In this document: one piece after another, positions 37,901 to 60,178 of the stretch | Numbering within the stretch: position 1 is the first letter of the stretch | How the letters are laid out: each line of letters opens with the position of its first letter | Assembly (NCBI GenBank): GCA_947034895.1 | Contig: OX344764.1 | Coordinates: 65,267,348-65,331,347, forward strand | Length of the DNA: 64,000 nucleotides | Source of the DNA: Rhytidiadelphus loreus | Taxonomy: Eukaryota > Streptophyta > Bryopsida > Hypnales > Hylocomiaceae | Direction of reading: 5' to 3' | Position numbers and translations under genes: made by a program | The notes under the pieces: model-generated | Told to the model about the DNA's origin: nothing | The model's input: the letters and a program-made list of their open reading frames with translations, nothing else | Database searches by the model: none

Positions 37901-38273
37901 CCACAGACCCTTCCACTGATGCATCCACAATATACCCTGCAACGGACTCAACAACAACATCAACCTCAAGATCTACTCCATGCATCTCCTCCAAACTCAT
38001 TTCTTTTGGTACAATCCCTTCACAGTTTCTGAATAATTCGAGGACTACGGATGGAATACGTTTACAACGTTCCACTGTTGATGTACGGGGGTAACCAAAG
38101 TGACCAAATGCCCGCTTCCACACGAAAACTTTGTTCCAACCACAAAAAATACAAGTCCTCGTATTTGCGGAACGAGCGGGGTTCGTTTCAATAACCAACC
38201 AGGGATCCCACTCCTTTGTGGCTCTTCGAGTATCATTTATGTTCGTCCTCCTCCCCGCTCCTCGGTTTGCCAT
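34986..38273 (-). pseudogene. hAT transposase (BED finger, DUF659-like core), one in-frame stop
   Basis: One frame of 1096 codons runs from ATG 38273 to TAA 34986, broken only by TGA at 37554-37556. Codons 41-74 form a BED-like zinc finger (CIFC, H58, C70, KRIP). After a Ser/Thr-rich linker, the DUF659-type hAT core contains SITQYGATICSDGWSD, LVCPAGDVFLGSVDTTGE, LCTDNASVM and GCAAHILDLLLED. The hAT dimerisation region (about codons 610-680) has QWWNRVGG, LSLTCSASSCERNWS and VCNRLATKKAEML. A long, acidic, low-complexity C-terminus (about 400 residues) is unusual for the family. The enzyme would bind element ends and catalyse cut-and-paste movement. The stop falls just before the conserved core and removes it unless read through. 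A motif array lies about 290 bp upstream of the start. Confidence 0.88.
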
Positions 38274-38565
38274 ATTGTTTATCTGATATGCGTTATTCCA
38301 AACCGAAACGTATATGTACCCAAGTGCTTCGGAAAAAAAAATTATGACAAAGCCACCGCTTCGAGTAGTTTTCTAACCACTCAAAGCAAGGTTGTTGCCC
38401 TCTGAAGAATATAACATTGCATGAAGCCTCTTGAGAAGATCCAAGCCATATGTTCATCAACAGAGCAATGGAAATCCAATGTTGTTCCTCTACATTTATA
38501 GTGCTTTCGGTCTTCCCTCCACACGCTCCAAGGATGGTTTTAGGGCGCCGCTATCAAACTCTATT

Positions 38566-38930
38566 ACACCCGAGGTCGCCCTACCCGACCGCTGGTCCAC
38601 CTCCAGGCATATGGAGGCGCGTGCCTTTGCAGTAGTCGACTTCGGGTCACATGGTGCGAACGCGGGTTCCGGCAGGCGACTTCGGGTCCGAAATAGGGCG
38701 AACGCGGGTCTAGGGAGGGCGACTTCGGGTCCAAGTGGGGCGACTTCGGGTCCAGGGAGGGCGACTTCGGGTCCCGGATGGGCGACTTCGGGTCTCAGAC
38801 GGGCGACTTTGGGTCCCGGATGGGCGACTTCGGGTCTCAGATGGGCGACTTCGGGTCCCACATGGGCGACTTCGGGTTTCATGGGAGACTTCGAGTGCCA
38901 TGGGCGACCTCGGGGGAAAGAAGGGCGACT
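38566..38930 (+). repeat. GCGAC-NN-CGGGT array 2, upstream of the hAT gene
   Basis: About 17 units, chiefly GGGCGACTTCGGGTCC and GGGCGACTTCGGGTCTCAGA, mostly on the plus strand, that is, antisense to the hAT gene that starts 293 bp away at 38273. Collagen-like or Arg/Pro-rich open frames over it are artefacts. Confidence 0.9.
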
Positions 38931-38948
38931 TCATGTGCATAAAGATTA

Positions 38949-39650
38949 ACTTAACCCCTAAAGGACCATTGTCCCCTCAAGGAACAATATGGATTTTGGG
39001 CAGGTTCCTATGATCTCAATTTTTAATGAATTTTTTGGAAACTATCTCATAATATACAAGAGCTTATTACCTTTATGGGAATATAAATTTTGTTGCAATT
39101 GGTACCTGGGATTCCGGGAACAAAAGTTATGGCATCTTTAACATAATTTGTAAGGAACGTCTTAGGGCAAAAAAAGAAATCTACAATAATTTGAAATTAA
39201 TTTTTTAATTTTTTTCTTCTTAAAGGTCATATTTTTGTCTACATGTGTAGCTTTGATTCATTCCATTTCGATTAGTAATGTGAAAGTTATGAACAATATT
39301 GTTTGGCAAGCAATCAAAATGAAATGATTCAAAGTTTTTCACATAGATATAAATCATAAGAAATTAAGAACCAATTTCAATATCAATTTTGTTATTGGAA
39401 ATGCCTTGTCATTTGTGAAGAATATCATTAATTTTTCGGGGGACCAACTGAATGCTAAGTATTGAAAACTACTTATCATACAAAAACATTTGAACCACGT
39501 AGTGAGAAGTTCTAAAATTTGGTAGGCTTCGAATTTAATCCTTTAAAAAATGTTGTGCCAAAGGAGATACTACAAATTCTATTCATGTTTCCCTTCTAAA
39601 TATCACTATGATGCCAAAACAAACTATTTCACTCCTTACGGGTTTAGGAT
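38949..39650. mobile_element. CCCCTAAAGG-family element nested in the giant element
   Basis: Starts TTAACCCCTAAAGGACCATT and ends in a decayed GGGTTTAGG near 39650. The interior matches 29638 (CAATATGGATTTTGGGCAGG, AGTTATGGCATCTTTAA) and the GCCAAAACAAACTATTT end block. Non-coding. Copies outside the giant element show that it is an independent family. Confidence 0.55.
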
Positions 39651-40114
39651 TTAGGAATATCTTCAAATCTATAGTAAACTTTATTTATTTTCACATCGTA
39701 GGAAGATCTTGCAATTGATGTACATGGCAAACTAGAAATTGTATGAAGTTGTTCAAATATAAATAATTGTTTGGATGTTCGGTATGAATTTCTTAAAAAG
39801 ACAATGGTATTATTACATTGTTGGTATTTTGTGTAAATGAAAGCACAAAAGTCTACGTAGAAAACTGACCTACAACACATGCAATAAATGTATTTGACAT
39901 GTGTCTAATCATCAAGAATTAGATCTTCAAAACACATAAAGGCTAATTCATATAGGAATATTTATATATCTTTATTGAAGAAACAAAACATGGACCCCAT
40001 TGTACAACATGAGGTGGTTCTAAAGGTCAAAGCAACCCTTCCGATATACACAAGTTTAGAAAAACAACTACCTATTAGTCTATTATTTACTAGAAGACTA
40101 CCTCTAGCCCAAAA

Positions 40115-41680
40115 TCATGCAACATCCGTATTGGCCTCCTCTTCCCTTTTCTTCTTCATGACTTCAAACTCATGGGCCGCAATTCTATAAGCACTCTTCA
40201 AAAGGGGTAGGTCATGGTTCCACATCTTGTTTTTGATCCAAAAATTCTTGAACGTTCTCGCATAACCAATGTGTGCAGTCCGGAAATCTATGTGCTTCTG
40301 AAACTGGTGTTCAAGCTTCTTCAAAGAAACTAACTTCTGCTTCAAGGAAGCTACCTCTGATGTCAGCACACAATGCTCTTCATCTACTAATAATGCATCC
40401 AAAGCCATTGGAAGGTCAATGGGGCCTACAACCGTGGTTTCTTTTAGGTCATTCAACCTTGACTGCGCCTCTTCCACAGCTTTCCTTTCGGTATTCAATC
40501 GGTTTTCTTCTGCCAAACACTCTTCCATTATTTTGGCCATTCGTTTATCCAAGAACGGGGTGGAATTTGAGGTAGAGCCTCCATCTTTGCCTTTATTGAA
40601 TTTCAAATAAAATTGCTCCAGCTCATCCATTTCCTTTTGTTGAACTGACAAACGAACTTTCCCGCTTATGATTAGTGCTTCAAGGGTGTGCTCATCGTTG
40701 TCCTGAATGTCACCACCAGTGTGTTCACGCTGCCTTTCACATTCCATTTCTATTTCTACCAGTCTACCAAGAATAGCCTTCAACTGGGCTTTATAAGCTT
40801 ATTTTCCTTGCCTCCTCGTGTCTTCAAGATATAATACTTCCCTTCCTGCTTCTTGAAGAGGTAGTTCTTCACATGAATCAAAAATCACCAATGCTTGTTC
40901 AGCATCTCGTTGCAACCCGATCTCGCCCTCCTCCTTGTCTTCCTCCATTTCTCGCATGCGTGCATATACATGTTGAAGAACTTCGTCTTCCTCAGGATGA
41001 CGGAAGTGCATTGGCTCCAACGATCTAAGAGGCGCGACATGCAATACTACTGCCCCTTCTGAGTCTCCAACAAAAGGTACCACCGCTGCCATATTTTCTT
41101 CAAGTATTGGATCTTCATTTGGGGGCATAGGGTCTGCAATGTCTTTTTCATCCGAGTCGGTGGAGGTGGACGACTGGCCCCAATCGTAGTCTTCATCCGA
41201 CACTTCTTCTTTGAAATGTTTTTTGGGCCCTAATCCATCCCTCGGATTATTTGATGGATCCACCCTTGGAATGTCTTTGGTAGTGGGAACTATGCTATTG
41301 GGAGTTTTCTTAATGGTCCTCCAATCCACAGTTCGTCGCAATTGTAGCTCTGCATAGACCATTTGGCATGTACCCAATGAAACTTGACTCCCCTTCACTG
41401 TTGGTTTTTGATATAATGTCCGGTAAACTTCGATGCACCGTTGCACAAATGCATCATCTTTGCAGTAGTGAAGATTAGCATTGTTTTGGCTGATATGGAC
41501 ATCGTGCCGGAAGTAAGGGAATAGCTTATCGATATGGCACCACCCTACGTAGGCCTTGCAAGTGTTGAACGTCCAATCCGATTGCACGTTTTGCCAATTT
41601 GGAAATGCCCTTGCTGTTGGGTCCAAAAGGATGGCTACATTCCGACTATGGCGCTCTCCTTTCTTCTTTGCCTTCTTAAA
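40115..41680 (-). pseudogene. Cargo protein P1: WCHI-domain plus coiled coil, one in-frame stop
   Basis: The open frame enters at 41680 (FKKAKKKGERHSRNVAIL) and runs to TGA 40115, with TAA at 40799-40801. The N-terminal ~105 residues match P2 and P3: W...W, YVGWCHIDKLFP, RH, NLHYC, FVQRCIEVYRTLY, MVYAELQLR and VDW. An acidic Ser/Asp/Glu-rich middle follows, then a Glu/Lys/Leu-rich, probably coiled-coil C-terminus. I do not recognise the domain. A candidate ATG (41691-41693) is followed by nine C residues, which puts it one base out of frame with the body; eight would restore it. Array 3 lies about 185 bp upstream of that ATG. Probably inactive. Confidence 0.75.
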
Positions 41681-41875
41681 GGGGGGGGGCCATGGTGAAT
41701 ATAGGATGTGTTGGTATCCTCCAAGTGCTCAGAAAGTATGGTCTTCCACAATCGACGACAACACAAAAAGTGTCCTAGACACAAGATTCCAGTGCACGAA
41801 CACGCATCCAGACGCTTGAAAGCATATGGAAGCCGATGCACAGCACTGGAAAAGATAGTGGCAGCTCGCATCCGT

Positions 41876-41997
41876 GGCGACCGCATTTGTACCCGAAGTT
41901 GCCCTGGGCGCGTGCGGGATCAGGGTTTAGGGGGGCGAGTGCGTTAAATGGGGCGACCGTGGGTACAGGGAATTCTGGGCGACCGCGGGTCCAGGGA
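41876..41997 (+). repeat. GCGAC-NN-CGGGT array 3, upstream of P1
   Basis: A short degenerate array (GGCGACCGCATTTG, GGGCGCGTGCGGG, GGGCGACCGTGGGT, GGGCGACCGCGGGT) on the plus strand, antisense to P1. Confidence 0.75.
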
Positions 41998-42028
41998 AAG
42001 GTAGTAGACTCAGGAAATGCAGAGGGAG

Positions 42029-42232
42029 AATTGACCCCCTCATTGCCCCCGTCAACTTAGATTTTTAAAAAAAGCCCCCTATATTCTGCCAACTTTTGGG
42101 TAATTCTTGCATCTCCTAGAAGTAATTTGGGGCCTCTGATTGCAAATATGATTTCAGAATTCCCCCAAAAATTAAGCAGTGCAAATAATAAATTCTAGGG
42201 CAAGCCCTGGATGGGCAATGAGGGAGTCAATT
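42029..42232. mobile_element. MITE, GACCCCCTCATTGCCCC family, copy 3
   Basis: AATTGACCCCCTCATTGCCC to GGGCAATGAGGGAGTCAATT, 204 bp, highly similar to 18779-18989 and nested inside the giant element. Confidence 0.75.
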
Positions 42233-42249
42233 CACCCTGGCCCTCACAA

Positions 42250-42950
42250 ATGGCTCATCTCAAGACTGATCTCCCTTTTTCATGTATTTACTTCAATGAA
42301 AATATTTTTAGATCATTTTTCAGACAAAGAAAAATAAAAGAAGAATCTAACACAAGTGATTTCATTTTTTTAAAGTATTTTTTAATTAATTGTAAATTTC
42401 CAAAGGACTTGTGTCATAGGTCCCTACTTATGCCCCTAGGTCTCCCATAAAACGTTCACTTGCAACTTCTAAAGAAAAATGGGGAAGTAAAGAGAATGAA
42501 TTGGCTTTTACAATTGATAATTTTTTTTTCTCGAATCATTTAATGATTATGGAGGTCAATTTATGAACTACAGTTTGTCCATTTCAAAGCCACTTATAGA
42601 GTCCATTTTTAATGCCCACTCCATTTTAGAGCCTTCTACCTTATATTTACTTTCACATCCTCACAAATGGAGAAAGGAAGTACAATTTATGTATCAATGA
42701 ATAGGTGGTAGTAAAATCGTGGGCCACCGCAATTAAAAATATTCCCAACATGTAATGAGTTTAATAGCTTTTTCAAGTGATATTAAGTTCTGGAAGAGAA
42801 CATTTTAGTGTGCCAATATAATTTGTAGTTCTTCATTTCAACTCCAATCCCAAATTTATTTTTATAAGCAATACACTCAACCATGAAAAAGTAAATTTGG
42901 TAGGTTATCATCTCACAACTCTTATCCAATATTGCACCTTCATGAAACGT
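42250..42950. repeat. Dispersed repeat segment
   Basis: The 42265-42460 phrases (TTTTTCAGACAAAGA, GTCATAGGTCCCTA) recur at 49500-49680. The 42480-42960 part recurs inverted at about 52030-52680 (TATTCCCAACATGTAATGAG and its inverse). No supported gene. Confidence 0.5.
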
Positions 42951-43301
42951 GCATACTAATACACAAGCTAATTAAACATTCCTATGGTTAGGTTCTTGTT
43001 TCATAAAACTTGCTTCAATGGAAATAACTATAAGTCCATGCTCTTTTCATAAAGGAAAAATACAGTTGGAAAGGCATAGGCACTTAGGGGGTCATTAGTA
43101 ATGCATTCTAATTGTTAAGCTAAACTTATCTTTTGACTGTAAATGGATTAGGCAAACACCGCTCTTGTAAAATCAAATTTCATTCGCAAGTATTTATTCG
43201 TCATTGTCCATAATGACGAACAATTCTAATTAAATAATGATTTAGCACAAGTGAATTCTAAAATACTGTATATCATTACAAATTAGTTACTTTAAAGTTT
43301 C

Positions 43302-43557
43302 AAAAATTCCCGTAAAGACCTCGGTCTAGGCCAGGTGTCATGCTTCGAAGGTTTGACCAAAGACCTCCTCGACCTCCGCAGTGAGATGTTTTCTATCTCA
43401 CTGCGGAGGTTGAAGAGGTCCTTGACCGAACCCATAAGCCCAAACCAGAACCTCGTACATCATGTACACCGGGTTGGGAATTGAACCGTAGACCTCTCAG
43501 ACTCCACTTGAATTCGAAGAAGTCGACCCTTGTCTGAGAATCCCTTCCACTACTTCA
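43302..43557 (-). ncRNA. Putative Pol III-type 256-nt hairpin RNA, copy A
   Basis: On the minus strand: A-box-like TGAAGTAGTGG (43557-43547), B box GGTTCAATTCC (43487-43477), a stem-loop (43420-43362) and a T5 run (43306-43302), exactly 256 nt. The stem pairs ACCTCCGCAGTGAGAT with ATCTCACTGCGGAGGT without mismatch over a 7-nt loop. Array 4 lies just upstream. The promoter assignment is from consensus only. Confidence 0.6.
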
Positions 43558-43696
43558 CCTGCTCGTTGGTCACATCGGGAATCACCTTCGATGCACCACT
43601 CCTTGTCCATCCCATCTTTATTCATTTTTTTCTTTGATTCTACGGGGCTTCAAAATACCATCAGCCGCCCAACAAAAATTAGTCTCCTCGTTTTGG

Positions 43697-43983
43697 ACCC
43701 GAAGTCGCCTTACCCGAGGTCGCCCACGTCCCAGAAAAGAGGGAATTTCAAATGCGTGAGTTTTTCCCTCCACTCTAGACCCGTGGTCGCCCCACCCGAA
43801 GTCGCCCCACCCGAGGTCGCCCTAGCACCGCAGAAAGAAGTCCCCAATTTCCCCCTTCTCTGGACCCGTAGTCGCCCTACCCGCGGTCGCCCCACACGAA
43901 GTCACCCCACTCGAGGTCGCCCCAGCACTGCTGAAGGAAGTCCCCAATTTCCCCCTTCTCTGGACCCGCGGTCGCCCCTACAT
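43697..43983 (-). repeat. GCGAC-NN-CGGGT array 4, upstream of RNA copy A
   Basis: About 11 units, written ACCCGAAGTCGCCCC or ACCCGAGGTCGCCC on the plus strand, in two blocks separated by GCAxTGCxGAAxGAAGTCC. Same orientation as the RNA gene. Confidence 0.9.
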
Positions 43984-44225
43984 CAGTATTTGAAAGAGTC
44001 ACTTAGAGAACATTGCTGTCATGGTAGGTGAGATCATAGAATATTTTCTACATAGCTTACAATTATATCACATGATCATTTTATTAAATGGTCCCTAACA
44101 AGGCTTCAATATCCTCAAGCCCTACAATCATGAACCGAAAACCCTACAAAGCCCTCGCAAACTAGAACCTATACCCAAACCTAAACCCTTGAATGCCCAA
44201 CCCATTTTAGGATGTTTTATGAATG

Positions 44226-44434
44226 TGCTTTAACATCAACAAGAAGCCAACATTTTGAATTATAGAATCAATTTCTTTGTACTTCTTCATTTTTCCTCCA
44301 ATGCCAAAAAACTTTATTTGTGCAAATTATCAAATTGTTGTGGAGGGGGATAATACACTTGAAGTAAAAAATGTACATTTCTCTTATTCTCTTGTTATAA
44401 TCTTACAACAGTTACGCAATGTTGCACTCAAAAT
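44226..44434. other. Link between tandem X units; no gene
   Basis: AT-rich sequence whose inverse partly recurs at about 50030-50180 (TGTATACTTCTTCATTTTTC-like phrases). Confidence 0.35.
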
Positions 44435-44795
44435 TAATGTGCATACTAACAAGCAAGTTCTTTATACATTCATACGGTTAGATTCAAAAATAAATAGGAA
44501 ACTTGCTTCAATGGGAATTACTATAAGTCCATGCTTTTTTTTAATAGAACAAATACAAGAGGGAAAGGCTTAGGCACGTAGGGCCTAATTAGTAATGCAC
44601 TCTAATAGTTAAGTTAAATTTATCTTTTGACTCTAAATGGATTAGGCAAACACCCCTCTTGTAAAATCAAATTTCATTCGCAAGTATTTATTCGTCATTG
44701 TCCATAATGACGAACAATTCTAATTAAAGAAAGATTTAGCACAATTGAATTCTAAAATACTCTATATCATTACAAATTAGTTGCTTTAAAGTTTC

Positions 44796-45051
44796 AAAAA
44801 ATCCCGTGAAGACCTCGGTATACGCCACATGACATGCTTCGAAGGTTTGACCAGGAGCCTCTTCGAACTCCACTATGAGCTGTTTCTTATCTCATAGCGG
44901 AGTTCGAAGAGGTCCCTGACCGAACCAAGAAGCCCAAACCAGAACCTCGTACATCATGTACACCGGGTTGGGAATCGAACCGTAGACCTCCCAGACTCCA
45001 CTTGAATTCGAAGAAGTCGACCCTTGTGTGAGAATCCCTTCCACTACTTCA
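44796..45051 (-). ncRNA. Putative Pol III-type 256-nt hairpin RNA, copy B
   Basis: A-box-like TGAAGTAGTGG (45051-45041), B box GGTTCGATTCC (44981-44971), stem-loop (44914-44857) and T6 run (44801-44796). The stem core is CTCCGCTATGAGAT against AGCTCATAGTGGAG. Compared with copy A, the CAG/CTG pairs have changed together to CTA/TAG. Length is exactly 256 nt. Confidence 0.6.
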
Positions 45052-45187
45052 CCTTCTCGTTGGTCACATCGGGAATCACCTTTGATGCACCACTTCTTGT
45101 CCATCCCATTTTTACTCTTTTTTTTTCTTTGATTGTACGGGTCTTCAAAACAACATGAGCCGCCCAACACAAATTAATCTCCCAGTT

Positions 45188-45477
45188 TTGGACCCAAAGT
45201 CGCCCCACCCGAAGTCGCCCAAGTCCCAGAGAAGAGGGAATTTCAAATGCGTGAGTTTTTCCCTCCTCTCTGGACCCGCGGTCGCCCCACCCGAAGTCGC
45301 CCCACCCGAGGTCGCCCCAGCACCGCAGAAAGAAGTCCCCAATTTCCCCCTTCTTTGGACCCGTAGTCGCCCTACCCGCGGTCGCCCCACCCGAAGTCGC
45401 CCCACCCGAGGTCGCCCCAACACCGCAGAAAGAAGTCCCCAATCTCCCCCTTCTCTGGACCCGCAGTCGCCCCTACA
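45188..45477 (-). repeat. GCGAC-NN-CGGGT array 5, upstream of RNA copy B
   Basis: About 12 units, same form and layout as array 4, including the spacer CACCGCAGAAAGAAGTCCCC that recurs in arrays 4 and 7. Confidence 0.9.
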
Positions 45478-45925
45478 TCAGTATTTGAAAGAGTCACTTA
45501 TAGAAGACTGCTGTCATGGTAGGTGAGATCATAGAATATTTTCTAGATAGCTTACAATTATATCACATGATCATTTTATTAAATGGTCCCTAACAAGGCT
45601 TCAATATCCTCAAGCCCTACAATCATGAACCGAAAACCCGACAAAGCCCTCGCAAAGTAGAACCCTAGAATCCAAACCGTAACCCTCAAATGCCCAATGC
45701 ATTTTAGGATGTTTTAGGATGCTTTAAATTGTACAAGAAGTCAACATTATATGTGCCTACTAACAAGCAAGTTGTTTAAACATTCATACGGTTAGATTAA
45801 AAAATAAATAGGAAACTTGCTTCAATCCCAATTACTGTAAGTCCATGCTTTTTTTTCATAGGAAAAATACAAGAGGGAAAGGCTTAGGCACATAGGGCTT
45901 AATAATTAATGCACTCTTATTGTAA

Positions 45926-46674
45926 TGCACTTCAAGATTTTTTCTCAAAGTAGCCAAAGTGACGGTTTTTAGTGGTTCTGAACCTATAATGGCCTTCGAA
46001 CTTCAGGGGTTAAATTCACATCTAAAGAAACTTTTATTAGTTTTCGATTATGGCTCAAACATATAGATCTTGCAAGAATATTTTGACCTTGTATTCAAAA
46101 GTAATGAACCTGGAAGAAGCCTTCAAGGTACTCTTTGTAAAAATGTTTTGTGAAACATTAAAAGGCAAATTCAAAATTTAATTTTTAATTTGTAGACCAA
46201 AATGGTTTTGTTGAGAGAAAACGTAATTTCTACATATAAAGGTGAAATTAATTTCACCTAAAAATGGTGTATTGCATTTAACCCTTATGTTCCCATTTTT
46301 TCTGGCCCATTCAAACCAATTGAGAAATGTCGTTTTTATTGCCAAAAACCTATTAAGATTACAAGAAAGTCATCCTTTTTTGCCGGATGAACCAATACAA
46401 GTGCCGATTGTCAATGCTTTTTAGAAGGAAAATGGGCTCCATTATTCCAAGGCTATATATCTTACTGTAGGATATCTTACTGGAACATTGAGCCTATTTA
46501 ATTCATTCATTGCAGCAAAATACAAACATTGATATGAGAGATTCAATACAACATACCATGAAGAATAGATCCACAATATTGCCAATTTGGGGAAAATGGC
46601 ACTTCATATTAAAATTTGATTACATGTACTAGAAGTACTACTCCAAAATGATACTATGGTATTCTTCTATCACA
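45926..46674. other. No gene seen
   Basis: Contains a CTTCAGGGGTTAAATTCAC end resembling the CCCCTAAAGG family (about 46000) and no supported coding sequence. Confidence 0.35.
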
Positions 46675-48315
46675 CTACAACACGGAGTCCCGAAAAACTA
46701 ATTCTGGAGGCTTCATATTCCAGGGTGGAAGCATGAGTGAAGCTACCACCTCAGAGCATGTGAGTCTCGTCTGTAAGTCAAGATCCATAAGCGCACGTAA
46801 CTTCATTGTAAAGAACTTTCCCGACTCAGGGTTTTTGAATAGTTCCCTGTCATATTCACCCATATAACCAATTTTCATGTTCCAAATCAATTTACCAATA
46901 GAAAACGAATCAGACTTAACCGTATACTTGTGCCTGGCTTGCATCTTGTCAAGGCTCGTTTCTGAACCCTTTGGCCCAAACACATAGAACAACTCTGGAG
47001 CCACCCACCATCTGCCTTTCAACATGTCATCCCTCTCTTTTGTGGTTTTGTATCCAAAATGTGAGGGAGCTCCCTCTTGTATACGACTGGCAATTCCCCA
47101 ATCGCAAATCCCAATGTTTATAACATCATCCGAGTACGGCGGATAATGGATTAATATGTTGTTGGGAGACAAATCGTTGTGTAGAACACCTTCATTGTGT
47201 ACAAGACTTGTCACATAAACAAGGGCCCATGCTAACTTCGCCTTGTGCCTTCGAAAGAGGCTAATTTGCTTCACCTGCTCTTGTTGAAGTTCCTTCACCA
47301 ACTTGATTTCGTGCCAATCGGCATGTGGCACGACCTTCTCATTCAAGCGAACAAGTTTGTTCAAATTACCACCATTCCACCACAACGTGTAGGCCTCCAT
47401 TGTATTGGCGTGGATAGCCACAAATTTAACAATGGCTGGGTGATTTAAAGGACACACCAAGGCCTCAATGGATCGTTCATATCTCGCATCACGCGTGTTT
47501 GTTTGCTTTGACACCTTCCCCGCAAAATGTACATGCTTGGGTATTGTAGACATGCCATCAATGTATACCTTACGCACCTTTCCATACCCCCCTTGTTGGT
47601 CATATCCACTAAGCGGAACCACTTTTGCACTAGAATTGATCCACATGAGAGACGATCCACTGTTTTGAGAAAGAGCAGCCGTCAATGCGTCCAACTGCCA
47701 CCCCATCGCCCTAGATACAGTCTTTGATAGTCTAGACGCCGCTTTCTACCACCATGCCATTTTTGCGTGGAATTCGATGGTCTCCTTATTTTCACACCCA
47801 GGGACTATAGGTCGGTGCTCTACAATGATTTTTTTGGTATTGAAAATGATTTCCATGAGCACGTTCTCCATCCACTTCTCATAGTTGCCAAAGTACATTT
47901 CATCCACGTCAGCATATTTCGGGGATTCTTTGCACTTTTTTAGAATAAAAGTGCTCAAATCTCTCTTCAACTTAATGATGCCTGATTCTTTATGCCTCAA
48001 GTATGTAGACTCTAGGAATTCCACAGTGCGTCCCTCGTACCATTCGAAACACACTCGCTGTGCAAATATTGAATAATCACGTGGAGGATAAGTTGGGTCC
48101 TTATCATGTGCCGTCTTTGACTTCTTCGACTTTGATGATGACTCTCCACCCGTTGACTCGTATGAGTCAATAGTCACTTGGAACTCCGCGGGATTGTCAA
48201 GGTCGGTGCCCCTTACATATTTCCTTATAGCATTCTCCCATTCCCGGGGGTCATCGTGGTTAATATCCCATAGAGATGGATGCATTGTACTACTCCCTTC
48301 TCTTGGATTAGACAT
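46675..48315 (-). pseudogene. Cargo protein kinase with HND/DWG motifs, one in-frame stop
   Basis: One frame of 547 codons runs from ATG 48315 to the stop at 46675, broken by TAG at 47746-47748 (codon 190). The N-terminal part is unrecognised (Ser/Lys-rich linker, then a Lys/Glu-rich helical region). The kinase domain follows: glycine loop QQGGYGKV (about codon 241), lysine in HFAGKVSK (codon 267), catalytic loop LHNDLSPNNIL (about 378-388) with Asp and Asn kept, DWG (about 405) in place of DFG, and WVAPELF as the APE segment. HND for HRD suggests no Arg-based activation-loop control. Key catalytic residues remain, so it may derive from an active Ser/Thr-type kinase. Array 6 lies about 165 bp upstream and is shared with RNA copy C. 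Confidence 0.82.
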
Positions 48316-48477
48316 AGCTCTTCCTTCACAAAGTTACCTACAATCGATGAATAAATAGAGTCGTGGAAAAAAAGGGCAACAAGTCCACACCCCAATCACC
48401 GCCTTGGCCCACAAGCTCGCATTCAGCCACTACAAGGTGGATGAAAGCCGTAGCACAGGACCAAGACTGGCGAATGC

Positions 48478-48862
48478 GGGTGGGGCGACCGCTTAAGTAC
48501 CCGCGATCGCCATAGGGGCGCGTGCGGGTGACAGGGCGCGTGCGGGTAAGGGCGACCGCGGGTAAGGGCGACCGCGGGTACCAAAGCGGTCCTGAAACCT
48601 GAACCCGAGGTCGCCCCCTACACCCGAGGTCGCCCTGGAACTTGGGACTTCCAGCTTTTTTGGTGCTGGGGCGACCTCGACTGGGGCGACTTCGGGTAGG
48701 CGACTTCGGGTGGGGCGACCGTGGGTCCAAAAGTCGTGGAAAATTCACGCATTTGTAATCCTCTTTGGGGGATTGGGCGACTTCGGGTGGGGCGACTTCG
48801 GGTGGGGCTATGGAGCCGTGGGGCGACTGGGAGACTATTTTGTGTTGGGCGACTTCGGGTAT
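48478..48862 (+). repeat. GCGAC-NN-CGGGT array 6, between the kinase gene and RNA copy C
   Basis: About 16 units in three blocks: plus-strand GGGCGACCGCGGGTAAG and GGGCGCGTGCGGGT, then two minus-strand units, then plus-strand GGGCGACTTCGGGTGG. It separates the divergently oriented kinase (minus) and RNA gene (plus). Confidence 0.88.
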
Positions 48863-50170
48863 TTTGAAGCCAATAGAATCAAAGAAAAAAAGGAATAAAA
48901 ATGGGATGGACAAGGAGTGGTGCATCAAAGGTGATTCTTGATGTGACCAACAGGAAGGTGAAGTAGTGGAAGGGATTCTCACACAAGGGTCAACTTCTTC
49001 GAACTCAAGTGGAGTCTGGGAGGTCTGCGGTTCAATTCCCAACTCCGTGTGCATGATGTAGGAGGTTATAGTTGGGTCTTACGGGTTTGGTCAAGGGGCA
49101 CTTTGACTTTCGCACTGAGATGAAAAACATTTCGGTGTGAAATTCGAAGTGCCCCTTGGCTCAATCCTTGAAGCACGTCGCGTGGCCTATACCGAGGTCT
49201 TCACGGGATTTTTTGAAACTTTAAAGTATCTAATTCGTAATGATATAGAGTATTTTAGAATTCAATTGTGCTAAATCTTTATTTAATTAGAATTGTTCGT
49301 CATTAGGGACAATGACGAATAAATACTTGTGAATGAAATTTGATTTTACAATACGGGGTGTTTGCTTTATCTATGTAGGGTCAAAAGATAAGTTTAACTT
49401 AACAATTAGAGTGCATTAATTACTAATGAACCCCTAAGAGCCTATGCCTTTCCAAGTGTAAGGTAGGAGGCTCAGAAATGGTGCACCTAAGGGCTGGTCT
49501 GCCTTTTTCGTGTATTTCTTTGGACGGGAATATTTTTAGCTCATTTTTCAGACAAAGAGAAATTGATGAGGAATCTAACCCAAGTGGTTTCATATTTTTC
49601 CAAAGATTTTTGAATTACTTATGAATTTTCAAACGAGTTGGGTCATAGGTCCCTATTTGTGACCCTAGATCTTTCATGAATGGTTCACTTGCAATTCTAA
49701 ATAAAAATGGAGAAAACACAGAGAATGATTGGCTCTTCCAATTAATAATGTTTTCTTCCTTGGTTCATTCAATGAATGTATTGGTCAATTTCAGAACTTT
49801 AGATGCACCATTCCACAACCATTTATAGGAGCCATTCTTAATGCCCGCACTCTTTCACAACCTCCTACCTTAGTTTTTCTGTTCTGAAAAGAGCATGGAC
49901 TTGTAGTTATTCCCATTGAAGCAAGTTTCCTATTTATTTTTAATCTAAACGTATGAATGTTTAAACAACTTGCTTGTTAGTATGCACATTCATTTTGAGT
50001 GCAAAATTGCGGAAGAGTTTTAAGATTATAACAAGAGAAATGTACATTCTTCACTTCAAGTGTATTACCCCTCTCCACAACAATTTTAAAGTTTGCAGAA
50101 AAAAAGTTTCTTGGGATTGGAGGAAAAATGAAGAAGTATACAGAAATTGATTCTATAATTCAAGATGTTG
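48863..50170 (+). repeat. Unit X, copy C (inverted relative to A and B)
   Basis: Carries the RNA gene, TTCGTCATTAGGGACAATGA, the TTTAACTTAACAATTAGAGT segment, then a copy of the 42265 dispersed repeat and the AAGCAAGTTTCCTATTTATT segment. The order matches copies A and B read on the other strand, with an extra insertion near 49460-49870. Confidence 0.75.
48959..49214 (+). ncRNA. Putative Pol III-type 256-nt hairpin RNA, copy C
   Basis: A-box-like TGAAGTAGTGG (48959-48969), B box GGTTCAATTCC (49029-49039), stem-loop (49093-49157) and T6 (49209-49214), 256 nt. The lower stem AAGGGGCACTTTGA pairs with TTCGAAGTGCCCCTT, differing from A and B on both arms. The upper stem TTTCGCACTGAGAT faces ATTTCGGTGTGAAA through Watson-Crick and G-U pairs. 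Confidence 0.6.
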
Positions 50171-50184
50171 GCTTCTTGTTCAAG

Positions 50185-50845
50185 TGAACCCCTAAGTGAC
50201 CACGAGGACAGGATGGGTCCTCAACCAATTTCCTAAGTTAAACAAAACCTTACCAAATTACTATATGTAGTAATTAATATTTTTGGAAAATTCTTTTTGA
50301 AGTTTAGTTTTAGCTTCAAAAATCTGATTTTGAAAATGATTGATTATGATTTTTCTATTTAAGATTTTGTGCATGGGTGTACACTTGCAATCTTGACTTT
50401 TTGTAGTGTTGAGGGCTCTTAGGAATGAGCCTCAAACACACTAAATCTTTGAGAAAATATCACATTACAAATGAAATTTAAAAAAATGATAAAGTAGATT
50501 TTGAGAAGTTATAAATTGATTGGGTTTATGCACCTTAGGCCCTTTAAGCTCATATTTTTTAGGTGACGAACTTTTTAGATTTCACATTTGAAAAGAGGAT
50601 TGAAATACTTCAAATCACTTTCACAGATTTAACACCCTCATGATAAAACATTATAATCTTTCAATAAATTAGAGGTATTGTTGTGTTTTCTTTTCTAATG
50701 TGATCTCTAATACGTCTAGTTTGAATTTACACGGTTACAATTCAAAAAGAATGGATAGAACGTATCAAAATGTTGGATTTTTGTTCAATTTAGAGCAAAT
50801 TCTAGAAGCTTAGCAAATTCCAGGGTCATTTTGGGGTTCAAGCAA
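50185..50845. mobile_element. TTAA/CCCC family Y element, inverted copy of 17762-18414
   Basis: Ends TGAACCCCTAAGTGACC and GGGTCATTTTGGGGTTCA are inverted copies. The interior (GATTATGATTTTTCTATTTA, CTTGACTTTTTGTAGTGTTG) is the inverse of 18185-18270. Here the outer tetranucleotide has decayed from TTAA. Confidence 0.6.
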
Positions 50846-51090
50846 ATTCATAAACCATCCTAAAATGCGTTGGGCATTTGAGGGTTTAGGTTTGCGTTTC
50901 TGGTTCTAGTTTGCGAGGGCTTTGTAGGGTTTTTGGTTCATCATTGTAGGGCTTGAGGATATTGAAGCCTTGTTAGGGACCATTTAATAAAATGATCATG
51001 TGATATAATCGTAAGCTATCTAGAGATTATTCTATGATCTCACCTACCATGACTGCAGTCTTCTGTAAGTCACTCTTTCAAATACCAATG

Positions 51091-51322
51091 TAGGGGCGAC
51101 CGCGGGTGAGGCGACCGCGGGTCCAGAAAAGGGGGAAACTAGGGACTTCTTTCTGCGGTGCTGGGGCGACCTCGGGTGGGGCGACTCCGGGTAGGGCGAC
51201 TTCGGGTAGGGCGACCGCGGGTCCAGAGAGGAGGGAAGAACTCACGCATTTTTGCTTCCCTCTTTTCTGGGACTTGGGCGACCGCGGGTAGGGCGACTTC
51301 GGGTGGGGCGACTTCGGGTCCA
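51091..51322 (+). repeat. GCGAC-NN-CGGGT array 7, upstream of RNA copy D
   Basis: About 9 units (GGGCGACCGCGGGT, GGGCGACCTCGGGT, GGGCGACTCCGGGT, GGGCGACTTCGGGT) on the plus strand, sense to the RNA gene, with the same spacers as arrays 4 and 5. Confidence 0.9.
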
Positions 51323-51457
51323 AACGTTGAGACTATTTCGTGTTGGGCAGCTGATGGTATTTTGAAGCCCAATAGAATCAAAGAAAAAAAAGAATAAAGA
51401 TGGGATGGACAAGGAGTGGTGCATCAAAGGTGATTCCCGATGTGACCAACGGGAAGG

Positions 51458-51713
51458 TGAAGTAGTGGAAGGGATTCTCACACAAGGGTCAACTTCTTCG
51501 AACTCAAGTGGAGTCTGGGAGGTCTACGGTTCGATTCCCAACTCCGTGTGCATGATATAGGAGGTTATGGTTGGGTCTTACAGGTTTGGTCAAGTGGCAC
51601 TTTGAATTGCGCACTGAGATGAAAAACATTTCGGTGCGGAATTCAAAGTGGTCCTTGGCTCAATCCTCGAAGCACGTCGCGTGGCCTATACCGAGGTCTT
51701 CACGGGATTTTTT
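51458..51713 (+). ncRNA. Putative Pol III-type 256-nt hairpin RNA, copy D
   Basis: A-box-like TGAAGTAGTGG (51458-51468), B box GGTTCGATTCC (51528-51538), stem-loop (51598-51650) and T6 (51708-51713), 256 nt. CACTTTGAATT pairs with AATTCAAAGTG at the base of the stem, and GCGCACTGAGAT faces ATTTCGGTGCG above. An alternative reading is a tRNA-derived SINE, but all four copies travel inside the larger X unit. Confidence 0.6.
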
Positions 51714-52095
51714 GAAACTTTAAAGTAACTAATTTGTAATGATATAGAGTATTTTAGAATTCAATTGTGGTAAATCATTATTTAATTAGATTTGTTCGTC
51801 ATTATGGAGAATGACGAATAAATACTTCTGAATGAAATTTGATTTTACAAGACGGGTGTTTGCTTAATCTATGTAGGGTCAAAAGATAAGTTTAACTTAA
51901 CAATTAGAGTGCATTACTAATAAAGTCCTAAGTGCCTTAAGCCTTTCCCTCTTGTATTTTTCCTATGAAAATTGAGCATGGACTTATAGTAATTGCCATT
52001 GAAGCAAGTTTTATAACCCGAAAATCTAACCGTATGAATGTTTAATTAGCTTGTGTAGTTGTGTATTAGTATGCACGTTTCCTTTGAGTGCAAAA

Positions 52096-52828
52096 TTGGA
52101 TAAGAGTTGTGAGATGATAACCAAGAAAATTTTCATTTTCTTTATTGATTGTATTGCTTATAAAAGAAAATTGGGATTGAAGGTGAAATGAAGAACTACA
52201 AATTATATTGGCACTCTAAAATGTTCTCTTCCAAAACTTAATATCACTTGAATAGCTATTAAACTCATTACAGGTTGGGAATATTTTTAATTCTGGTGGC
52301 CTACGATTTCACTACCACCTATTCATTGATACATAAATTTTTTTGCTCAGGCAAGGGTGTGCATTGAAGCATTTGACACTCAAGGAAACACTATCGTAAA
52401 TATTTTTTTAGTTGGGGAGTTTCTCCAAATCCGACGTCCATTGGATTTTAAAGAGGGTTCCTTTCTCCATTTGTGTGGATGTGAAAGTAAAGATAAGGTA
52501 GAAGACTTTGAAATGGAGCGGGCATTAATAATGGACTCTATAAGTGGCTTTAAAATGGACAATCTGTAGTTCATAAATTGACCTCCATAATCATTAAATG
52601 ATTCGAGAAAAAAAAATTATCAATTGTAAGAGCCAATCCATTATCTTTACTTTCCCATTTATGTTTAGAAGTTGCAAGTGAACATTTTGCAGAAGACCTA
52701 GGGGCATAAATAGGGACCTATGACAGAAGTCCTTTGGAAATTTATAAGTAATTATAAAATACTTCCAAAAATATGAAACCACTTGTGTTAGATTCCTCTT
52801 TTATTTGTCTTTGCCTGAAAAATCACCT
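52096..52828. repeat. Inverted copy of the 42265-42960 dispersed repeat
   Basis: Phrases such as TTGTAAGAGCCAATCCATTA and CTAGGGGCATAAATAGGGAC are the inverse of those at 42420-42520. Open frames here are not supported. Confidence 0.5.
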
Positions 52829-53106
52829 GAAGTCGCCCAGGGACCCGCACCCGAAGTCGCCTAGGGACCCGCACCCGAAGTCGCCCAGGGACCCGCACCC
52901 GAGGTCGCCCAGGGACCCGCACCCGAAGTCGCCCAGGGACCCGCACCCGAAGTCGCCCAGGGACCCGCACCCGAAGTCGCCCAGGGATCCGCACCCGCGG
53001 TCGCCTTGTGGACCCGTGGTCGCCTGGGTACCCGCAGTCGCCCTTGTTCGGTCGGGGGACCCGCACTCGCCCTACTTGGAGGACCTGCACTCGCCCTCCC
53101 GCGACC
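52829..53106 (-). repeat. GCGAC-NN-CGGGT array 8, upstream of P2
   Basis: About 13 units, very regular at first (CCCGAAGTCGCCCAGGGAC in 24-bp steps from 52833), then degenerate. Minus-strand orientation, that is, antisense to P2, which starts about 350 bp downstream. Confidence 0.92.
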
Positions 53107-53452
53107 GCTAGTCCCAATACAAATGGGGTGGGGTGGACTTGCGGTCATCAGTCCCCCTGCTTCTGTGCAAAGGCTGTCATCCACCTTGAAGTGGCTGACT
53201 GCATGTGCGTGAGGCAGGGATTGGGGAATGAAGGAATTTCATTCTTCTCATTCCATGCATGTCTAAACCGCGGTGTTTCGTAAACTTGACCCTATCTGCT
53301 ACGATCTTTGAACCTTGAACATCTACTTCTGCTTCGATATTTGTAAATGTGTCACACGTATGATTATTAGTTTCACTTAGTTAGAGTAAGTATTTTGGCA
53401 TTGAGACTTTTATATAGTATATATTGCTTAGTTATACATACGTTGTTAAAAC

Positions 53453-54946
53453 ATGGAGCGTACGACCTCGCCATCTCCTCCTACCATACCTACTCCATTG
53501 ACTCCGCAAGAGAAAAGGGCGATGAAGGACAAGGGTCGAATACGGTCAGGCAAGAAGCACAAGAAGCGCGTGGCCATATTACTTCATCTGAAGATTAAGG
53601 CTTTTAAGGGTTGGAGGGATGAACCAGAGCCTTGGAGTTACCGGACTGTTGCGAAGTATGTGGATTGGTGCCACATCAGCAAGTTATTTCCGTTGTGTCG
53701 TCACCCTTTGCACGTTCAAAACCAAAAGGTTAACCTTGCGTATGCTACGGACACAAGGTTCATGCGTAGATGCTGCGAAGTATGGACCCTTCTATATTTG
53801 GAGACCAAAGTGTACAGAAACGATAATTTCAGTTTCTTTCTTGTACGAATGGTGTATGCCGAAGTTGTTTTGAAGAAGGTAGTCGATTGGACAACACTCC
53901 CAGAAATGCTTATTGCGGTCCGTCCGGACCAAAAAGAGTGGGAGGAAGCCTCCAACTTGTGGGCAAAGTATCCTCTTGATATAAGCAAGATGATGACACC
54001 GATTAAGCGTGGAGCATCATTTGTTGCTGATGAAGAAGTAGTTTGGTCTTCCACTTCTTCCTCGGACGAGCACATCCATGAGTACAACGGATATTCCTTC
54101 TCTAGCGATGATGAAGATGTTTTTGTCACCGAGTCCAAGAAGTCTTTGGATGTGGGCCTTCAGAAGAAGAAAGATCGTGGAAAAGAGCCCATTACCTCAA
54201 CCAGCCATGAAGAAGTCTTGAAAAAAGTTGACCCCATGGAAGTGGAGGACTTTTCCACAGAGGAGTGTGCGATGCTAGAAGGTGATAGTGATTCATCAGA
54301 CAATGAGGAGACCTTGATTGCCAAAATCGAGAGTGCACGTTTATCATTGAGTACAAAGAGTGAGGAACTGAAGAATTTGAAGGAACGCGAAGTGTCTTCT
54401 CCCACTGAAGCTTATTTGAAGCAACAATTGAGGTCTCTCAACCAAATACTCAAAGAGAGAGATGACGATTTTGTTGCTTTTAAGAAGAATGGAGACCAGT
54501 ATTTAACTAAGCAGAGCACCGGGAAATTGTCGCAAGCTGACCATTGTTTATTGTGGAAATCAAAATTAGAAACCCTGCAACGCAGACGTAGGAAAGCACA
54601 GAATGAGCGGCGAGCACTGCGTGTTCAAATTACCGAAGAAGAAAAGAAATATTACGAAGCGGCCAAAAAACATGTCAAGGAGGTGGACGTTTTGGCAACG
54701 GCCTCGACATACGGTAATCTACCAGAGGAGTTAGAAATGCTTCGGAATTTGGTGAAGTTCCATGAGACTAGAGTACAAGTGTTGGAAGACGAGTTTGTGG
54801 ATCTGAGAGCCGAAAGTGAGTATTATACGCAGTGGATGAAGTGGATGAAGGATACAACGGGAAAGAGAGGTGAAGAATACGAGAAAGTGGGTCCTCCTCC
54901 TAATATGAGTGACTTCCTAAACCAAAAAGAGGTTTTTAGAAAGTAG
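53453..54946 (+). CDS. Cargo protein P2: WCHI-domain plus acidic and coiled-coil regions, intact
   Basis: An uninterrupted frame of 497 residues from ATG 53453 to TAG 54944-54946, the only intact protein gene of the giant element. Residues about 20-42 are basic (KDKGRIRSGKKHKKR), possibly nuclear or nucleic-acid binding. Residues about 46-150 form the domain shared with P1 and P3: AFKGW, PWSYRTVAKYVDWCHISKLF, CRHPLH, VNL, RRCCEVWTLLY, MVYAEVVLKKVVDW. About 195-290 is acidic and Ser-rich. About 290-450 is Glu/Lys/Leu-rich with predicted coiled-coil character. There is no intron and no motif I can assign to an enzyme. Array 8 lies upstream. Function unknown; an accessory or DNA-binding partner for the transposase is one possibility. 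Confidence 0.8.
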   Translation: MERTTSPSPPTIPTPLTPQEKRAMKDKGRIRSGKKHKKRVAILLHLKIKAFKGWRDEPEPWSYRTVAKYVDWCHISKLFPLCRHPLHVQNQKVNLAYATDTRFMRRCCEVWTLLYLETKVYRNDNFSFFLVRMVYAEVVLKKVVDWTTLPEMLIAVRPDQKEWEEASNLWAKYPLDISKMMTPIKRGASFVADEEVVWSSTSSSDEHIHEYNGYSFSSDDEDVFVTESKKSLDVGLQKKKDRGKEPITSTSHEEVLKKVDPMEVEDFSTEECAMLEGDSDSSDNEETLIAKIESARLSLSTKSEELKNLKEREVSSPTEAYLKQQLRSLNQILKERDDDFVAFKKNGDQYLTKQSTGKLSQADHCLLWKSKLETLQRRRRKAQNERRALRVQITEEEKKYYEAAKKHVKEVDVLATASTYGNLPEELEMLRNLVKFHETRVQVLEDEFVDLRAESEYYTQWMKWMKDTTGKRGEEYEKVGPPPNMSDFLNQKEVFRK

Positions 54947-55411
54947 TGTACCGCATTTTGGTGAACAATATTGTAAATTTGTAAGTAAGATCCAATTTTG
55001 GATATTGCGGCTCTCTCGTGATTTAGTAAAGAATATGCTACAATTTTTTTGGCATTCAAAGTTCACGTGGTTTTTTAATAATTATTGTACACTTTGTAAT
55101 GTGTATTGCAAATTTCTGAACTTAGTGTATTCGCGAAATATTTAGTCACAGCTTTTGAAACCAATGTAGTACAAGAACAGAAGACCTAATGTTGCTCAAA
55201 TCAGTTTTGTTATGTCATTTTATTCTGGATTTGTACTAGAAATGTTTATCTTGATATTTATTGGGTGAAAACATAGCCCTAAAGACCTAACCCTCTACAG
55301 TTAAAATAACCAATTGCTTCATTTTCTAGCTAAGTTCCATCGCTACTTACATGGCTTGGTGAATTTTCAAATGATTCCAATAGGTTTTTTCCATTTTCAG
55401 TGTTTTTCTAA
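54947..55411. other. 3' flank of P2; no gene
   Basis: AT-rich sequence after the P2 stop, likely including its 3' UTR. Confidence 0.35.
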
Positions 55412-56358
55412 ACCCATAAAGTCCGAAGGCCATTTTTAGGTGAAGAAAAAATCAAAACTGTCATTTCTATAATTCTATTGTGTTTGTCCAAAGAAAAAAA
55501 TAAACTTTTGTGGAACTGAAGCTGAGGATCTTGAACTTCACTTGTTTAAGATTTTGTGGTTAAAATTGTACGATGTTTGACTGTACAGATTTAGAGATAT
55601 GAGCATTCAAAGTTGAAGAACAATTTTTTTGCAACACTGGACTACACTTTCAGACGACTTTGATTGCTATTTCTTCCAAAAATGTGCACTATGGAATTTG
55701 AATTTAAAATTTATTGTGTTGAAGAATTGAGTTGGGAGTGTAGGAAAAAAATATTCAAAAAATAATAACTTCCTTTTCATACTTCAAAAAATTGTCAAGT
55801 AGAAGTAGATCCAAGGTTAAAAGAAAAACTAAATTGATAATAGCTCTTACATGGGATTGGAACACAATAATCCGTTAGTCCCAACAGTGAGATTGTTGTA
55901 GGAAGCAAACTTCTCCTTTAAAATAAACTAATTAGAGAAAATTTGAAAATTGGATTTTCAAATGAATTCTATAAGTTATTTTTTGAAATATTTGTTTACA
56001 TTGCCTTAAAAAGAACAGGGTTCTTAACTTGCACATCACTAATGAAAATGGAATGAATCAAATCTTTTTATGTAGACAAAAACATAATGTTAGCAAAAAC
56101 ATGAACAAAATTAAATCTATTTTGGATTTTTGCAATGTTTTTTGTATTGCCTGCCGAGTTTAGTTCTAGGTATTTTGTGGCGTAACTTTTGCTTCCGGAC
56201 ACCAATTGAAATAAAAATTATATTCCCTCAAAGCTTATCAGATTTTATCTTTTCACAAAAAATTTCAAAAAATTAGGGTACAATTTCAAGCCATAGAAAC
56301 TTGCCCAAATTCCAAATTGTCTCTAGAGGGGACAATGGGACTTAAGGGGGTCATCATG
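55412..56358. mobile_element. CCCCTAAAGG-family element, inverted copy
   Basis: From CTAAACCCATAAAGTCCGAA to GGGACAATGGGACTTAAGGG. The right part is the inverse of the 29638 and 38949 left ends. Non-coding, nested in the giant element. Confidence 0.5.
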
Positions 56359-56956
56359 TTCACTTTTTCTGTTTATGGAACTAAAATGATAACAATTACA
56401 ATCTTCCATGAAATGAATTGAGATAATGAGATTGCTTACAATGATATACAATTTTGAATTCTAAGTAATAAAATTTAAAGTTTACAGTTGAATTAATTTT
56501 AGAAGCTTAAATGTCAATGCAAATGACAATGTCAAAGTGAACTTCAACTTTAATAGCTCTTTGATAATAAGCTTCATACAATCAGTTGTACCACATATTT
56601 GATTTTGTTCGAACATAGTGAAGTCTTTGGAGTAGAAAATAATGTAGAATATGTTTCAAAAATGAAGGCACTGTAATATTCTCGGTAATATTGCAATACA
56701 AATGTGTAGCATACAATCATAGAAGGCTCGAAGTTGGCCTATATGGAACAAAACAAAAAGACTGAGAGCTACACGCTTCTACCATATATAATACGCTTCT
56801 ATATACTAGGGGTTTGACATTATATATCCTTGGACGTAAACCAAGTAACCAAAGGAGAAATGAATTCCATCATTAAATTCTCAGACGTCAAATCCATTTG
56901 GATTGTTTTTACTTCTTAGAAGAACTTGCTTCACCATGTGAAGGTTGAAGTGCCTC
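56359..56956. other. No gene seen; 3' flank of P3
   Basis: AT-rich; contains nothing I can support beyond a probable 3' UTR of P3. Confidence 0.35.
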
Positions 56957-60047: not shown

Positions 60048-60178
60048 TTGCCACATGGCAGCCAGGTAAGCCTAGGTAAATGGGGGGTAAATTCCAGAAA
60101 AGTCAAAGGATAAAGTTGACTCTATTAGACGGACGGGCCCCTCTACTAGACGTCTTCGACGTCGAGTTTGTCGAGTTG

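What the first reader, a model, noticed from the sequence alone, without database searches (positions are those of the whole stretch)
43302..51713. Four copies of a 256-nt Pol III-like RNA gene with a covarying stem-loop
Seen: at 43302, 44796, 48959 and 51458 the distance from an A-box-like TGAAGTAGTGG to the last T of a T5-T6 run is exactly 256 nt, with a B box (GGTTCxATTCC) 70 nt from the A box. Between B box and T-run is a long hairpin with a 7-nt A-rich loop. Arms differ between copies but change together: CAG/CTG in A is CTA/TAG in B, and the lower stem CTC/GAG of A and B is CAC/GTG in C and D. Paired changes imply selection on RNA structure. I know no named RNA of this form.
Basis: partly seen in the sequence, partly recalled or inferred. 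Interest (0 to 1): 0.9.

Follow-up and report, generated by a model that had tools for sequence, protein, structure and literature searches.

The report
Covarying hairpin inside a giant transposon
The four repeated "RNA genes" are not free-standing genes but pieces of a module repeated inside a 26-kilobase jumping gene found in many copies across what is probably a moss genome, and each piece carries a long hairpin whose two arms have changed together, so the pairing seems to matter even though its job is unknown.

Summary
In detail: four units at the stated places, each exactly 256 nt, with a long hairpin whose arms change together. The units are internal parts of a 26.2-kb hAT-superfamily DNA transposon (34046-60204): CAGGG termini, 8-bp target duplications in 2 of 4 elements with both ends read, and a DUF659 + hAT-dimerisation transposase. 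In the window they face outward (--++) around a cargo kinase gene, in modules that align well past both the "A box" and the "terminator". Pol III or SINE status is not supported: no tRNA match, A/B boxes not clearly above chance, no boundary at the unit's ends. The hairpin holds up with more data: in 23 chosen copies, 18 of 33 pairs have changes on both sides. The 27 distinct within-class changes are all one-sided, with A-C as common as G-U (9 vs 8); between classes G-U exceeds A-C 15:4 (14:4 without a constant pair). This hints, weakly, at past RNA-level selection on the sense strand. Template switching at the DNA level remains the main rival. Function is inferred, not shown.

The parts
34046..60204 (.). 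Giant hAT-superfamily transposon, 26,159 bp, termini CAGGGTTGTCT... / ...AGACAACCCTG; contains all four units
   Evidence: Homology to the window begins at 34044-34046 in 3 of 3 fetched left sides and ends at 60203-60206 in 9 of 10 right sides
34986..38372 (-). hAT transposase: 34986-37553 (DUF659 + Dimer_Tnp_hAT) and upstream ORF 37554-38372 in the same frame, separated by one stop codon in this copy
   Evidence: Pfam PF04937 3.2e-32 and PF05699 5.1e-6 for 34986-37553, no Pfam match for 37554-38372; ORFs
40115..41728 (-). Cargo gene P1 (ORFs 40799-41728 and 40115-40798), paralogue of P2, no Pfam match
43302..43557 (-). Unit A (256 nt)
43343..43437 (-). Hairpin of unit A with flanks (95-nt alignment window)
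44796..45051 (-). Unit B (256 nt)
44837..44931 (-). Hairpin of unit B
46675..48315 (-). Cargo protein kinase gene (46675-47706 Pkinase; 47746-48315 adjoining ORF without Pfam match)
   Evidence: PF00069 4.3e-16
48959..49214 (+). Unit C (256 nt)
49079..49173 (+). Hairpin of unit C
51458..51713 (+). Unit D (256 nt)
51578..51672 (+). Hairpin of unit D
42307..45923 (-). Left arm: tandem modules carrying units A and B; inverted relative to the right arm
   Evidence: self-comparison; module alignment
48639..52831 (+). Right arm: modules carrying units C and D (interrupted at 50235-50846 by a repeat also found at 17757-18364)
53450..54946 (+). Cargo gene P2, downstream of unit D on the same strand; only a Pfam match below cut-off (NuA4, 13.3 bits against 25)
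57425..59302 (-). Cargo gene P3, paralogue of P2 with a weak C-terminal RING-finger match (below Pfam cut-offs)

Best explanation
The four units are homologous parts of a roughly 1.3-2.5-kb module, repeated in tandem and facing outward on both sides of a cargo kinase gene, inside a 26-kb hAT-superfamily transposon that multiplied across this plant (probably moss) genome. In the contexts examined the units spread with the transposon and by tandem duplication of the module, not on their own (shown). Each module carries a hairpin of 33 or more pairs. Its foot and its loop-proximal pairs are nearly constant, while about 20 pairs between them have changed a great deal with pairing mostly kept (shown). 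Inferred: the module is transcribed in the sense direction as part of a transposon RNA (units A and D lie upstream of cargo genes P1 and P2, on their strand). Base pairing was kept by selection on that RNA while a lineage was active, and decays once a copy is dead. The likely job is that of a leader or dsRNA stem in the transposon's own transcript.
For: Transposon: main matching pieces 92-99% identical in the 10 fetched contexts; ends and TSDs GTCATTGT and CCTGGACG; transposase domains. Of 34 unit clusters on contig C1, 16 have an exact left terminus 9.4-13 kb away in the right orientation, against a mean of 0.23 (maximum 3) for shifted positions. Genome-wide, 695 unit motifs with 0 control matches and 663 left ends with 0 control matches. 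Tandem spread: unit number in the left arm varies, with one array of 11 at 1,362-bp spacing. Hairpin: 18 of 33 pairs changed on both sides, 94.2% of cells paired against 81.7% shuffled and 31-49% slid. RNA level: 27 of 27 distinct within-class changes are one-sided, 8 giving G-U, 9 A-C. Between classes, distinct G-U to A-C states are 15:4 (counted; binomial p 0.019, Fisher against within-class 0.08); without one G-U pair that is constant in all classes, 14:4, p 0.031 and 0.086.
Against: No transcript data. The G-U/A-C contrast is small and borderline, and the 10 class references are related (B', D' and F44 are sub-classes), so the states are not independent events. Differences between B and B' and between D and D', some of which break pairs, are not in the count of 27. 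A sequence that pairs with itself on both strands can also be maintained by template switching. Counting each pair once, faster divergence of the hairpin is significant in only 2 of 10 class comparisons. 18 of 34 C1 clusters had no exact left terminus within 15 kb (termini with mismatches were not listed).
Confidence: 0.62

Rival explanations
1. DNA-level palindrome: the hairpin is a quasi-palindrome in the transposon whose arms are kept complementary by template switching or arm-to-arm conversion, with no RNA function.
For: Template switching can make and maintain hairpins with multi-base paired changes (PMC8794818, abstract and opening of the introduction read). The hairpin is the fastest-diverging part of the module (A vs D 0.67 identity in the worst 64 nt, against 0.80-0.97 in the other windows), as a mutation hotspot would be. 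Within-class polymorphism per site is also higher in the hairpin than in the flanks in 3 of 5 classes. Block changes such as D versus D' look like conversion.
Against: All 27 distinct within-class changes are one-sided, so correction is not quick in recent copies. The process should treat G-T and A-C mispairs alike, but between classes G-U exceeds A-C 15:4, or 14:4 without a constant pair.
Confidence: 0.28
2. miRNA-like or hairpin-siRNA cassette (a special case of the RNA reading): constant foot and loop-proximal pairs serve processing, and the changing middle of about 20 pairs is the small-RNA duplex, diversified among tandem cassettes.
For: The variable middle (alignment columns about 19-38) is 20 pairs long, between a foot and a loop-proximal part that are nearly constant. 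Several distinct classes occur in one element. For the class E arm, 4 exact genome matches have no listed partner arm and remain unexamined, so outside targets are not excluded.
Against: For class E, of 25 matches of the 5' arm that could be checked, 20 have the partner arm 36 bases away and 1 more is the fetched unit L056; the one lone 2-mismatch site (C1:982059) equals the one control match. In the window none of 22 arms matches beyond its shuffled controls except one site at 945-946 (arm A3, 4 mismatches; A5, 5 mismatches). The searches for classes A and C did not complete. Classes I and H have longer loops.
Confidence: 0.17
3. Free-standing Pol III gene or tRNA-derived SINE of 256 nt, as first proposed.
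For: Perfect B-box consensus (recalled) GGTTCRATTCC in all four units with a T5-T6 run at the end; the unit's first 64 nt are among the most conserved windows of the module; B-box-like sites 16 against 10.3 in controls.
Against: No tRNA match. A+B-box-like pairs 12 in the window, 4 of them at these units, against 7.05 in controls. Homology runs past both ends without a break. The fetched contexts are the transposon, and 16 of 34 C1 clusters have an exact transposon end nearby.
Confidence: 0.05

Closest known systems
hAT superfamily DNA transposons (DUF659 / Dimer_Tnp_hAT transposases of plants)
   Different: 26 kb long, with a kinase, three paralogous cargo genes without a Pfam match above cut-off, and tandem hairpin modules; typical hAT elements are a few kb (recalled)
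Cargo-carrying large transposons (fungal Starships)
   Same: A transposon moving a set of non-transposition genes
   Different: Starship classification centres on a tyrosine recombinase (abstract start in a search listing); here the transposase is hAT
Plant MIR hairpins arising from transposons
   Same: Long near-perfect stem in a repeat
   Different: No Rfam miRNA family matches at cut-off (best mir-1265, 16.7 bits against 79); no target shown; no small-RNA data
tRNA-derived SINEs
   Same: B-box-like motif, dispersed, many copies
   Different: No tRNA similarity found, no own ends or target duplications seen, embedded in a DNA transposon

Membership tests
hAT superfamily transposon (the 26-kb element) | Transposase with hAT dimerisation region | tested here: met
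   PF05699 26.6 bits (cut-off 21.4), PF04937 111.7 bits
hAT superfamily transposon (the 26-kb element) | 8-bp target-site duplication | tested here: met
   Perfect in 2 of 4 elements with both ends read (L042/L025, L043/L040); absent in the window's own copy and in L041/L022
hAT superfamily transposon (the 26-kb element) | Short terminal inverted repeat starting CAGGG | tested here: met
   CAGGGTTGTCT at both ends in all 4 elements with both ends read; the CAGGG hAT motif itself is recalled
hAT superfamily transposon (the 26-kb element) | N-terminal BED-type zinc finger | tested here: inconclusive
   ORF 37554-38372 has no Pfam match; a C-x2-C...H pattern is visible but not scored
tRNA-derived SINE | tRNA-related head | tested here: not met
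tRNA-derived SINE | Own ends with target duplications at independent sites | tested here: not met
   Homology continues through both unit ends; fetched contexts are the transposon
Pol III gene with internal promoter | A and B box at suitable spacing, T-run terminator | tested here: inconclusive
   Present, but 12 such pairs in the window against 7.05 in controls at relaxed stringency
Pol III gene with internal promoter | Pol III-dependent transcript of about 256 nt | not testable with these tools
   No expression data
Plant miRNA gene | Stem-loop precursor with near-perfect ~21-nt duplex | tested here: met
Plant miRNA gene | Precise 20-24-nt small RNA from one arm | not testable with these tools
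   No small-RNA reads
Plant miRNA gene | Complementary target outside the hairpin | tested here: inconclusive
   Class E: 21 of 25 checkable matches are hairpins, 4 exact matches unexamined; window-only scan for the other classes

The most novel reading that the evidence does not exclude
A giant cargo-carrying hAT transposon carries tandem, outward-facing arrays of structured RNA cassettes whose foot and loop-proximal pairs are constant and whose ~20-bp middle is diversified with pairing preserved: a transposon-encoded small-RNA or structured-RNA system that varies its specificity between cassettes, perhaps against rival or sibling elements.
Probability: 0.13. Interest if true: 0.85.

Novelty: new variant of a known kind. 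Interest (0 to 1): 0.5.

Why it matters
A family with hundreds of units in one genome, split into paralogous classes, makes a long-standing question testable. Are paired changes in hairpins the work of selection on RNA or of template switching at the DNA level? Recent copies give a near-neutral baseline and the between-class changes give the outcome, and the G-U against A-C contrast separates the two. It also adds a 26-kb cargo-bearing hAT element with a kinase and three paralogous cargo genes, probably in a moss.

Tried and rejected
Rfam on the whole window and at E<=10 on 701 bases: nothing credible. SINE reading: rejected by module alignment and contexts. Diversifying selection: a McDonald-Kreitman-type table was significant at 0.05 in 7 of 10 class pairs with sites counted singly, but only in 2 of 10 (A-E, B-E) with each base pair counted once, so I do not claim it. 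Targets of the arms: in the window none of 22 arms beyond shuffled controls except one site at 945-946; in the genome class E only, with 4 matches left unexamined. Literature: three searches on large or cargo hAT elements and mosses and three on covarying or transposon hairpins. The listings (15 of 536; 12 of 5,503; 3 of 3; 3 of 3; none for 69 and 70) showed no title describing this. That is not proof of absence.

Rows dropped: 4 of 55 unique units (L050, L054, L057, L058, with indels) were left out of the pair-change count. In one search the 55 unique units come from 79 finds, with overlapping loci among them. D-class copies were fetched as best matches to the window's copy, so that class is biased toward similarity. 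A1 holds 23 chosen hairpins of the 55 unique units.
Full report
OBSERVATION. TGAAGTAGTGG starts at 48959 and 51458 on the + strand and at 45051 and 43557 on the - strand; the last T of the T-run is nucleotide 256 in each, and the B-box-like GGTTC[A/G]ATTCC starts 70 nt after the A box (read). The 95-nt hairpins fold at -50.0 to -60.9 kcal/mol with z -8.4 to -12.2.

WHAT SURROUNDS THEM. Self-comparison shows that the units are part of long repeats: left arm 42307-45923 and right arm 48639-52831, inverted to each other, on either side of a protein kinase gene (46675-48315, Pkinase 4.3e-16). The four modules align without a gap from about -64 to about +384 around the A box, through both supposed ends of the RNA gene. 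The window lies in an unnamed 407-Mb genome of 489 contigs. The D unit has 707 first-look candidates there, of which 40 were scored, all 98-100% identical over the full query. I fetched 20 kb around 10 copies. On the right side, homology ended at window 60203-60206 in 9 of 10, and 1 of 10 (L023) ran off its stretch. On the left side, 8 of 10 stayed homologous past the units, some with module gains or losses; in L037 the stretch ended inside a tandem array, and in L032 homology stopped at 47356. Three of three further left stretches began to match at 34044-34046. The termini are CAGGGTTGTCT and its inverse. Two of 4 elements with both ends read have perfect 8-bp duplications (GTCATTGT; CCTGGACG); the window's copy and L041/L022 do not. 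ORF 34986-37553 has DUF659 (3.2e-32) and Dimer_Tnp_hAT (5.1e-6).

COPIES. The unit motif (<=2 mismatches) occurs 695 times with 0 control matches. The 100 listed places (exact, contig C1) form 34 clusters: 14 of four, 7 of three, 10 of two and 3 of one. Sixteen of 34 have an exact left terminus within 15 kb in the right orientation, and 3 more within 30 kb; randomly shifted termini give 0.23 within 15 kb on average, 3 at most. Only exact termini were listed, so this is a lower bound; 15 of 34 had none. The left end occurs 663 times. If the 34 clusters per 100 motifs hold genome-wide there would be some 240 hairpin-bearing clusters (extrapolation), so many family members may lack the modules. 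The right-end count did not complete. Left arms differ in unit number: in class E, 11 listed units follow each other at 1,362-bp spacing on C5.

HAIRPIN. I found 79 units (55 unique) in window and loci, which I sort into nine classes A to I with sub-classes B' and D'. On 23 chosen hairpins (alignment A1) with 33 pairs, 94.2% of cells pair and 18 pairs have changes on both sides. Shuffles average 81.7% and 13.6, with 0 of 500 as high in any of five measures; slid versions pair 31-49%. The tool warns that related sequences can exceed shuffles without structure; the count of pairs changed on both sides is its safer measure. A model of the hairpin finds only the four known hairpins in the window, scoring higher on the sense strand (94-102 bits) than on the other (48-60); the model was built from these sequences, so the scores confirm nothing by themselves.

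SELECTION OR MUTATION? Three results bear on this. (i) The hairpin is the fastest-changing part: A against D 0.67 identity in the worst 64 nt, 0.80-0.97 in the other windows; fixed differences between classes are 5-40% per hairpin site against 2-7% in flanks. Since paired sites are counted twice, I recounted each pair once, and the excess over within-class variation is then significant only for A-E and B-E (2 of 10). I therefore do not claim diversifying selection. (ii) Within classes, all 27 distinct changes are one-sided: 8 make G-U, 9 A-C, 7 other mispairs, 3 turn G-U to a standard pair. This looks like neutral decay, and quick arm-to-arm correction is not seen. B', D' and F44 served as their own references, so differences such as the pair-breaking block between D' and D are not in this count. 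(iii) Between classes, distinct non-standard states over 10 references are 15 G-U, 4 A-C and 9 other, counted by me from the per-position listing. Against 1:1 this gives p 0.019, and against the within-class 8:9 a Fisher p of 0.08 (0.05 one-sided). One G-U pair is constant in all ten; without it 14:4, p 0.031, Fisher 0.086 (0.062 one-sided). RNA tolerates G-U better than A-C, whereas DNA template switching should not care. This favours, weakly, RNA-level constraint on the sense strand. The classes are related, so the p-values are optimistic.

MECHANISM. Shown: passenger module in a hAT element, tandem expansion, covarying stem. Inferred: sense transcription, since A and D lie upstream of P1 and P2 on the same strand, and P1/P2/P3 are paralogues; selection for pairing in active lineages; a role as leader or dsRNA stem of the transposon's own RNA. 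The variable middle of 20 pairs invites a small-RNA reading. The class E arm has 149 genome matches at <=2 mismatches, not all listed. On C1 and on C2 up to 55.47 Mb, where the listing lets arms be paired, 20 of 25 five-prime-arm matches have their partner arm 36 bases away and one more is the fetched unit L056. Of the 23 two-mismatch matches there, only C1:982059 stands alone, equal to the one control match; the other two unpaired by the 36-base rule are the arms of the fetched unit L050. So outside targets are neither shown nor excluded.

AGAINST POL III AND SINE. No tRNA match; A+B-like pairs 12 against 7.05 in 40 Markov controls, B-like sites 16 against 10.3; no ends at the unit.

LITERATURE. 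PMC8794818 (outline with abstract and opening of the introduction read) reports that template switching can create and maintain RNA hairpins; this is the basis of the main rival. Other papers were seen in listings only.

Noticed in passing
window 40799-41728 (-), 53450-54946 (+), 57425-59302 (-): Three paralogous cargo genes sharing a motif around W...WCHI.K.FP..RH, the third with a weak RING-finger match; no Pfam match above cut-off covers the shared part.
   Followed up: partly
window 34253-34435, 38637-38931, 43684-43977, 45160-45472, 48500-48860, 51093-51334, 52823-53111, 59884-60042: A GGGCGACCTCGGGTG-type repeat of 15-bp period recurs across the transposon and next to its genes; possibly transposase-binding or regulatory arrays (coordinates partly read by eye).
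   Followed up: no
window 51792-51819 and the homologous places in units A-C: A second, smaller inverted repeat (TTCGTCATT...AATGACGAA), about 80 nt after the T-run, in the strongly conserved downstream part of the module, present in all four modules.
   Followed up: no
G000:C5:20630547-20644167: Eleven class E units at exactly 1,362-bp spacing: a local tandem expansion of the module.
   Followed up: partly
window 6947-7456, 21169-21826, 29641-30294, 38948-39333, 55694-56351: A diverged repeat of several hundred bases present both inside and outside the giant transposon.
   Followed up: no
window 20388-20604 and 30548-30910: Two long palindromes matching their own reverse complement at 90% and 86%.
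   Followed up: no
window 1519-2325 and 32405-33367: Reading frames with DDE_1 transposase domains (the first also HTH_Tnp_Tc5); the second lies just left of the giant element.
   Followed up: no
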